From NCBI RefSeq assembly GCF_014042165.1, contig NZ_JACDZE010000001.1, forward strand, positions 434,001-498,000: a stretch of DNA of 64,000 nt, given 5' to 3'. This document shows, in pieces, positions 45,755 to 47,359 of this stretch. Every line of letters begins with the position of its first letter. Within the stretch, counting starts at the first letter, position 1. This DNA is from Moheibacter lacus. Lineage in GTDB: Bacteria > Bacteroidota > Bacteroidia > Flavobacteriales > Weeksellaceae. The position numbers were made by a program, and so were the translations under genes. The notes below the pieces were generated by a model. It did not search any database. It was not told the DNA's origin and saw nothing but the letters and a program-made list of their open reading frames with translations.

Positions 45755-47359
45755 ATGAAAAACATTTTATTTTCGATCGTCGGACTTTTGGGGATTTCTG
45801 CATTTTCCCAAACTTCGTATACGATTTATGATCAAATCGTTTTTTACGACGGATATGCCGCAACAGTTGACGAACCGGTTCCGGACGGAGTCGTCCGTAT
45901 CAATAATGCGCGATACACGACCAAATTATCAGACGAAATGGTCAATAACCTATCCGCAGGTTCACTATCACTGGATGTCACCATCGGCGCGCTTTGTGAC
46001 AATTATGATCGGTTGGGCGAAATCTTTTTGGCAATGGTTCCACAGGGAGCAACCGAATACGATTCAGATGCCGTTGAACGTATCGAAATCGCGCGTATCA
46101 TCACGCCGTTTATGAATAAGAATATCAATCCTACGGAAGTTCCTTATCATTTTAAGCTGGACAATGTTGCCGAAATTTTTAACGACGCAACTTTAAATGC
46201 AGAATTTGATTTTTGGTTAGAATTTGAAGTTTTTGGTGTCCCCTACGCTGCACAAACACAGGTTGCAGGTTGCGCAGGAAGAATCGATGTGTTTGAAGGA
46301 ACTTTGGTTTTTAACGTAGACGAACCTACAGAAACCTACACAAATCCTCATTTTCTTTTACCGCTTTCGGATTATGAAATTCTAAATAATTACAATGCAA
46401 CGGATGTTCCGGGCGAAACCACCAAAATCATCAATTTCACACTGGATGCTCCACAAGAAAATGTCGTTTTGTATCTGATCAGTTCCAATCACGGTGCCAA
46501 TGCGGGAGGAGAAGAATACGAACGAAGAAAACATTATTTGTATTTGGATGACGAATTGATCCATCAATATGTTCCGGGTGGAAAATCTTGCGAGCCTTGG
46601 CGACAATTCAACACCCAAGGAAATGGAATCTACGGAACCGTTCCCAAAACCACACGTCAATGGTTGGAATTTAACAACTGGTGTCCCGGTGATAAAATCC
46701 CAAACAGAGAAGTCGTTTTGGGCAATTTAGCAGCTGGAAACCACACCCTTAAACTGGATGTTCCCGATGCTGTTTTTGTAGGCGGAGAAGGCTATTTCCC
46801 GATTTCCATGTATTTGCAAAATCGTAAAAGCGGTCAAATCATCTGTAAAGATCCGACGGACTTTGTGATCACTGAACAAATTGGCAATACCATCACAACC
46901 AATTGGACAGAAAATGGCGATGCTGCAGAATGGGAAATCATGTATGGAAGAAGAGGCGTTCCATCACAAGAATTATTCCTGAGCGATACCGATGGTGAAA
47001 CCGGTTACCAATTGACCGATTTGACTGAAAACTGGTATTATTCACTTTATGTGAGATCGGTTTGTAGTGATGATCTTTCCAGCGGTTGGGTAGGACCAAT
47101 TGACTCTGATAGAATTCTAGCTACATCCGATGCTGATTTGGCAAAAATTCAATTTTACCCCAATCCGGTTCAAGATGTTTTGCAAATTCAATCTGAAAAA
47201 GAAATTGAAACCGTTACCATCCTCAACATGGAAGGAAAAAAATTAAAAACAGAAACAGATACTACGATCAATTTCTCAGTTTATCCGGCAGGAAATTATT
47301 TGGTAATCGTCAAATTGAAAAATGGCGAAACCATCACCAAAAAAATCATGAAACGCTAA
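45755..47359 (+). CDS. T9SS-secreted PNGase F-like peptide-N-glycosidase
   Basis: 534 aa. A signal peptide (residues 1-18, ending SAFSQ) is followed by an N-terminal jelly-roll (about 20-190) with LCDNYDRLGEIFL, where the YDR segment resembles the PNGase F active-site Asp region. The second jelly-roll (about 200-360) has SSNHGANAGGEEYERRKHYL and NWCPGDKIPNREVVLGNLAA, which resemble the PNGase F C-terminal domain. A fibronectin-III-like domain (about 375-450) and a T9SS sorting domain (QFYPNPVQDVLQIQ at its start) follow. The enzyme would remove N-glycans from glycoproteins outside the cell. Catalytic residues are assigned by motif resemblance only. Confidence 0.8.
   Translation: MKNILFSIVGLLGISAFSQTSYTIYDQIVFYDGYAATVDEPVPDGVVRINNARYTTKLSDEMVNNLSAGSLSLDVTIGALCDNYDRLGEIFLAMVPQGATEYDSDAVERIEIARIITPFMNKNINPTEVPYHFKLDNVAEIFNDATLNAEFDFWLEFEVFGVPYAAQTQVAGCAGRIDVFEGTLVFNVDEPTETYTNPHFLLPLSDYEILNNYNATDVPGETTKIINFTLDAPQENVVLYLISSNHGANAGGEEYERRKHYLYLDDELIHQYVPGGKSCEPWRQFNTQGNGIYGTVPKTTRQWLEFNNWCPGDKIPNREVVLGNLAAGNHTLKLDVPDAVFVGGEGYFPISMYLQNRKSGQIICKDPTDFVITEQIGNTITTNWTENGDAAEWEIMYGRRGVPSQELFLSDTDGETGYQLTDLTENWYYSLYVRSVCSDDLSSGWVGPIDSDRILATSDADLAKIQFYPNPVQDVLQIQSEKEIETVTILNMEGKKLKTETDTTINFSVYPAGNYLVIVKLKNGETITKKIMKR

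What the first reader, a model, noticed from the sequence alone, without database searches (positions are those of the whole stretch)
45755..47359. PNGase F-like deglycosylase exported by T9SS
The two jelly-roll halves of PNGase F are followed by an Fn3-like domain and a T9SS sorting domain. An enzyme that removes N-glycans points to use of eukaryotic glycoproteins, unexpected if the organism is purely free-living. No glycan-uptake genes lie beside it.
Basis: partly seen in the sequence, partly recalled or inferred. Interest (0 to 1): 0.5.

Follow-up and report, generated by a model that had tools for sequence, protein, structure and literature searches.

The report
Secreted PNGase F-type deglycosylase, ordinary
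This is a secreted bacterial enzyme of a well-known kind that clips sugar chains off other organisms' proteins, very likely for food; its catalytic residues are in place and similar enzymes are common in related bacteria, so it is a solid but ordinary find.

Summary
The structural version failed: poor AlphaFold model, fold search busy.

The ecological reading is only partly supported. Use of foreign N-glycoproteins is the likely role, but it is not unexpected in a free-living bacterium: the PNGase F C-terminal domain scores over cut-off in 179 of 395 genomes of the order (an upper bound), and the orthologue is in a sediment isolate. The gene stands alone, which is usual for published PNGases. 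The genome has a second, type II PNGase and three GH92, seven SusD and SprA hits of PF14349, but no GH18 or GH20. Nearest published layout: PNGaseL of Flavobacterium akiainvivens. New member of a known kind; low interest.

The parts
45755..47359 (+). PNGase F-superfamily gene, 534 aa, with T9SS sorting domain
45755..45811 (+). probable signal peptide (aa 1-19, ends ..SAFSQ)
   Evidence: read from the sequence; no signal-peptide program was run
45830..46267 (+). N-glycanase_N jelly-roll half (aa 26-171)
   Evidence: PF09112, 39.3 bits
46007..46009 (+). codon of D85, equivalent of PNGase F Asp60 (catalytic), in the motif C-D-N-Y-D-R
   Evidence: 33 of 33 family sequences
46208..46210 (+). codon of D152, probable equivalent of PNGase F Glu118
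   Evidence: three MAFFT modes, 33 of 33; profile alignment to PNGase F; 3ks7 has Y-I-D-T-W where PNGase F has Y-T-E-T-W; the profile alignment to type II is shifted here
46418..46816 (+). N-glycanase_C jelly-roll half (aa 222-354)
   Evidence: PF09113, 87.2 bits
46514..46516 (+). codon of E254, equivalent of PNGase F Glu206 (catalytic)
   Evidence: 33 of 33 family sequences
46853..47071 (+). Fn3-like module (aa 367-439), weak
   Evidence: PF00041, 18 bits, under cut-off; 4 of 29 family members at E<=0.01, (7 of the 29 were cut before this module); profile match to a tenascin-R chain at E 0.021
47156..47347 (+). T9SS type A sorting domain (aa 468-531)
   Evidence: PF18962 42.8 bits; TIGR04183 39 bits

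Best explanation
A secreted peptide:N-glycosidase (EC 3.5.1.52) of the PNGase F superfamily. It crosses the inner membrane by its signal peptide and the outer membrane by T9SS through its C-terminal domain. Outside the cell it hydrolyses the GlcNAc-Asn amide of N-glycoproteins, with D85 and E254 as the catalytic pair and D152 in the place of Glu118. This frees the glycan and exposes the protein to proteases, as nutrient acquisition from algal, plant, fungal or animal debris. Shown: domains, residue mapping by sequence, sorting domain, conservation and selection. Inferred: signal peptide, actual export, enzymatic activity, substrate range, nutritional role.
For: Both PNGase F Pfam domains are above cut-off in the window protein and found at E<=0.01 in 29 of 29 family members scanned. 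Solved sequences hit at E<=1e-12 are PNGases or PNGase-family proteins; the family profile finds the same five at E<=1e-16. D60->D85, E206->E254, W251->W309 and E118->D152 hold in 33 of 33 sequences; profile alignments to PNGase F and to the type II enzymes agree on D85 and E254. H246 falls opposite Trp191 of PNGase F in the profile alignment, fitting the statement in PMC12381499 that other PNGases have His where PNGase F has Trp. The core is under purifying selection. T9SS sorting domain and SprA are present. The genome has enzymes that could use released glycans: three GH92 hits, one Asparaginase_2 hit, seven SusD hits. PNGaseL, of similar layout, was active on all six substrates of its first screen (PMC12381499).
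Against: No activity data. The AlphaFold model from a two-row alignment is poor (mean pLDDT 50.3, pTM 0.46) and the fold search never ran, so placement of residues rests on sequence alone. PNGase F itself is found only at E 0.068-0.089 by the family profile, and the N-terminal half alone finds no PNGase. The residue aligned to Arg248 is Phe or Trp in all 33 family sequences while five type II sequences keep Arg. MAFFT left Trp191 opposite a gap. The profile alignment to type II puts D152 and the Gly of F-I-G-N-Y in different columns. Two of 29 members also match PNGaseA (PF12222) weakly, best E 0.0046. No GH18 and no GH20 in the genome.
Confidence: 0.86

Rival explanations
1. A PNGase-fold protein that binds glycans or acts on another bond, no longer a PNGase.
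For: The Arg248 position is aromatic in 33 of 33 sequences; the subfamily is only 21-23% identical to PNGase F and the type II enzymes in profile alignments; I found no report of an assayed member, unless PNGaseL is one.
Against: Asp60 and Glu206 equivalents are present in 33 of 33, which a binding-only protein would not need. The distant zebrafish homologue Ngly2 (24% similar to PNGase F) is active with the same two residues and loses all activity when either is changed to Ala (PMC12753239, passages).
Confidence: 0.09
2. It processes glycoproteins made by the bacterium itself rather than food.
For: The gene stands alone, with no glycan-uptake genes recognised beside it here, in M. sediminis, or around the second PNGase (by eye).
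Against: The general protein glycosylation described for Bacteroidetes is O-linked (title and start of abstract of PMC8698959), whereas PNGases act on Asn-linked GlcNAc. Prokaryotic PNGase F enzymes are described as nutrient enzymes (PMC12381499).
Confidence: 0.04
3. A copper monooxygenase-like (PHM fold) jelly-roll protein misread as PNGase.
For: PHM is recalled (no call) to share the double jelly-roll fold.
Against: Among alignment columns filled in at least 25 of 29 rows, only H246 and H330 are His and only M120 is Met in more than 90% of rows, too few for two copper sites (the need for more is recalled). The PNGase Pfam models match above cut-off and the PNGase catalytic residues are present.
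Confidence: 0.01

Closest known systems
PNGaseL, Flavobacterium akiainvivens (PMC12381499)
   Same: PNGase F-superfamily core with a small C-terminal beta module and a T9SS signal; most PNGase genes in that paper are orphans; environmental flavobacterium; aromatic-Asp-positive/aromatic motif (Y84-D85-R86 here) and a His plus a Glu on another loop (H246, E254 here).
   Different: PNGaseL is assayed and broad; this protein is not assayed.
PNGase F (type I), Elizabethkingia meningoseptica (1PNF)
   Same: Asp60, Arg61, Glu206, Trp251 and Cys252 equivalents present.
   Different: About 23% identity; Glu118 is Asp and Arg248 is Phe/Trp; extra Fn3-like and T9SS domains here.
PNGase F-II (type II; 4r4x, 7zgn)
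   Same: Same superfamily; among the strongest solved relatives by sequence.
   Different: Lacks the N-terminal bowl domain (PF22252) that this genome's own second PNGase has; the type II Gly that makes room for core alpha-1,3-fucose (PMC9522356) is Asp here, if D152 is placed correctly.
Bacteroides group 1 PNGases (3ks7, 4qhb)
   Same: Asp in the Glu118 position (PMC9522356, passages; motif).
   Different: Only the C-terminal half matches by sequence. That they carry no T9SS or Fn3 domain is recalled and fits their chain lengths of 395-397.

Membership tests
PNGase F superfamily (PF09112 + PF09113) | both N-glycanase domains above curated cut-off | tested here: met
   39.3 (cut-off 22.4) and 87.2 (cut-off 25) bits
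PNGase F superfamily (PF09112 + PF09113) | catalytic Asp60 and Glu206 equivalents | tested here: met
   D85 and E254, 33 of 33 sequences; sequence alignment only
PNGase F superfamily (PF09112 + PF09113) | two eight-stranded jelly rolls side by side | tested here: inconclusive
   model too poor; fold search busy
PNGase F superfamily (PF09112 + PF09113) | hydrolysis of GlcNAc-Asn | not testable with these tools
   needs an assay
PNGase type II (PNGF-II) | N-terminal bowl domain PF22252 | tested here: not met
   no match; present in the genome's other PNGase
PNGase type II (PNGF-II) | Gly at the Glu118 position | tested here: not met
   Asp in 33 of 33 by alignment to PNGase F; the type II sequences themselves were gapped at that column
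PNGase type I-like (group 1) | Glu or Asp at the Glu118 position | tested here: met
   D152; sequence alignment only
PNGaseL-like | close sequence relationship to PNGaseL | not tested
   sequence not in reach; a search of the main text of PMC12381499 for accession, UniProt, locus tag and GenBank found none
T9SS type A cargo | C-terminal sorting domain above cut-off, with a T9SS component in the genome | tested here: met
Fibronectin type III domain | PF00041 above cut-off | tested here: not met
   18 bits against 25

The most novel reading that the evidence does not exclude
The protein belongs to a Flavobacteriales PNGase subfamily, perhaps unassayed, with a remodelled active site: Arg248 replaced by an invariant aromatic, Glu118 by Asp, and a conserved Cys (C173, 28 of 29) in a stretch that PNGase F lacks. 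That could give a substrate range different from type I and type II, for example native algal or invertebrate N-glycans. Some genomes, this one among them, hold it together with a type II enzyme, as a complementary pair.
Probability: 0.35. Interest if true: 0.35.

Novelty: new member of a known kind. Interest (0 to 1): 0.2.

Why it matters
It adds a candidate deglycosylase for glycobiology (PNGaseL, of similar layout, is a commercial product according to PMC12381499) and places likely N-glycoprotein use in a Weeksellaceae lineage that includes a sediment isolate. It changes no general picture.

Tried and rejected
Structure route: AlphaFold on the core with a two-row alignment gave mean pLDDT 50.3, too poor to superpose. 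A deeper alignment was not submitted because the tool names only window sequences and loci from the search for related loci, the DNA search or the look-up of encoding contigs; relatives from the genome search are not on that list. The second structure job was not used. The PDB fold search was tried four times and the machine was busy each time.

E156 was first considered as the Glu118 equivalent because it is invariant in the 29-row alignment A3. It is Gln in L071, and the E/D-x-W/Y motif, the profile alignment to PNGase F and all three MAFFT modes point to D152. The profile alignment to type II puts E156, not D152, opposite a Gly, and that Gly is the earlier of two in the stretch, so D152 is probable, not proven.

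A glycan locus was sought around the second PNGase (38 kb of contig C7; frames of 150 aa or more judged by eye from their first 60 residues): none recognised next to it; one GH92 lies about 22 kb away. Paper searches for PNGase with Chryseobacterium (3 papers, none relevant by title) and PNGase with T9SS (only PMC12381499) found no assayed member of this subfamily; the library holds only open-licence papers.

Rows dropped: a first alignment used 20 of 32 loci because my script looked at one strand only; it was replaced by A3. A3 is P0001 plus 28 of the 30 loci L004-L033: L004 is the window gene itself and the frame of L013 holds a stop codon. Seven A3 rows (L027-L033) were cut at the end of the core match. 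One search adds four sequences from another family of the order (L068-L071).

Full report
Observation. The reading frame 45755-47359 (+) is intact, 534 aa. Pfam places N-glycanase_N at aa 26-171, N-glycanase_C at 222-354, a weak fn3 at 367-439 (below cut-off) and Por_Secre_tail at 468-531; NCBIfam agrees on the T9SS type A domain. By sequence, the five solved sequences matched at E<=1e-12 are 7zgn, 4qhb, 4r4x, 4r4z and 3ks7, PNGases or PNGase-family proteins under other names, all through the C-terminal half. The N-terminal half alone finds no PNGase chain, and PNGase F itself appears only at E 0.068-0.089 with the family profile.

Where it is. The window lies at G000:C1:434001-498000 of a 2.77 Mb genome, 99.79% complete. 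The only named relative found by the one genome-contig scan is Moheibacter sediminis, 70% identical over the whole length. Its contig has the same length as G038 contig C14, and G038 is listed as same genus, so the window is very likely from a Moheibacter species (Weeksellaceae). Within that genus the gene is patchy: of six genomes searched, only the own one and G038 have a match beyond 1e-20; two of the other four are only 76 and 81% complete. A genome of another genus (G124, g21) has a 71% identical copy.

Catalytic residues. PNGase F letters were recalled and verified against 1pnf. In three MAFFT modes over 33 family sequences, five type II sequences and PNGase F, Asp60 maps to D85, Arg61 to R86, Glu206 to E254, Trp251 to W309 and Cys252 to C310, each the same residue in 33 of 33; Glu118 maps to D152 (Asp in 33 of 33) and Trp120 to W154 (Trp or Tyr). 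Profile alignment gives the same D85 and E254 against PNGase F (probability 83-84%) and against type II (99%), D152 against Glu118, and H246 against Trp191 of PNGase F. Asp60 and Glu206 are the active-site residues cited in PMC12753239 (passages), whose zebrafish homologue loses all activity when either equivalent is changed. PMC9522356 (passages) reports Glu118 in PNGase F, Asp in Bacteroides group 1 and Gly in type II; the Bacteroides chain 3ks7 shows the matching motif. Against the reading: the Arg248 position is Phe or Trp throughout the 33, while type II keeps Arg, and the profile alignment to type II is shifted around D152. All of this is sequence only, since the structure model failed and the fold search never ran.

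Selection and family. Against the M. sediminis gene, the core (aa 20-356) is 81% identical with pN 0.12 and pS 0.67; the Fn3-like part is 62% and the sorting-domain part 39% identical. That is a conserved enzyme on a loosely constrained carrier. In a sample of 197 genomes of the family, 58 carry a core match at E<=1e-110: 23 (own included) over most of the protein and 35, all in genus g20, over the core, in frames of 440-480 aa (my count from the rows). Two of those 35, G135 and G191, have two copies with starts about 1.7 kb apart. In the wider order the family profile matches at E<=1e-60 in 37 of 395 genomes and 5 of 109 genera.

Is it unexpected? PF09113 scores over cut-off in 179 of 395 genomes of the order, 60 of 109 genera. 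Many of the weaker listed hits lie in frames of about 650-1170 aa and may be other jelly-roll proteins, so this is an upper bound for PNGases. PMC12381499 (parts 1-4 of 5 read) assayed six superfamily members, among them ones from marine sediment, decaying wood, maize and soil isolates; it notes T9SS signals on two of them and that most of the genes are orphans. So neither the free-living habit nor the lonely gene is a puzzle.

Surroundings. Beside the gene lie a metallo-beta-lactamase-fold hydrolase and an FG-GAP T9SS protein upstream, and an M3 peptidase on the other strand downstream. In M. sediminis the immediate neighbours differ: by my reading of the ORFs, a tyrosyl-tRNA synthetase upstream and a bactofilin and an M23 peptidase downstream; a closely similar 678-aa frame (methionyl-tRNA synthetase by eye) lies downstream in both, 5.7 and 1.4 kb away. 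Elsewhere in the genome: a second PNGase with the type II bowl domain (C7:126006), three GH92 hits, one Asparaginase_2, seven SusD and SprA, but no GH18 and no GH20.

Verdict. Very probably an active, nutritional, T9SS-exported PNGase F-superfamily enzyme. A new member of a known kind. The most novel reading left open is an altered substrate range from the remodelled active site.

Noticed in passing
G000 contig C7:126006-126428 (L001:250-1932): A second PNGase, type II with the PF22252 bowl domain, in the same genome; 560 aa, no T9SS sorting domain matched.
   Followed up: partly
window:29280-30587 (+): Protein with a T9SS plug domain (PF17116), about 15 kb from the PNGase gene.
   Followed up: no
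window:40985-41552 (+): Two adjacent 95-aa frames that look by eye like a ParD/ParE-type toxin-antitoxin pair.
   Followed up: no
window:42508-45045 (+): FG-GAP repeat protein (9 FG-GAP_3 stretches) with a T9SS sorting domain, two genes upstream.
   Followed up: no
window:26688-29249 (+): Leucine-rich-repeat protein with DUF7619 and a T9SS sorting domain.
   Followed up: no
G135:C18:35477-38258 and G191:C44:1004360-1007131: Two copies of the family's core gene, starts about 1.7 kb apart, in genomes of genus g20.
   Followed up: no
L013 (G137:C11:127277-128911): A family member whose frame holds one in-frame stop codon; left out of the alignment.
   Followed up: no
genus g1 genomes G009, G055, G069, G079: Four genomes of the window's own genus lack a full-length match to this protein, so the gene is patchy within the genus.
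   Followed up: no
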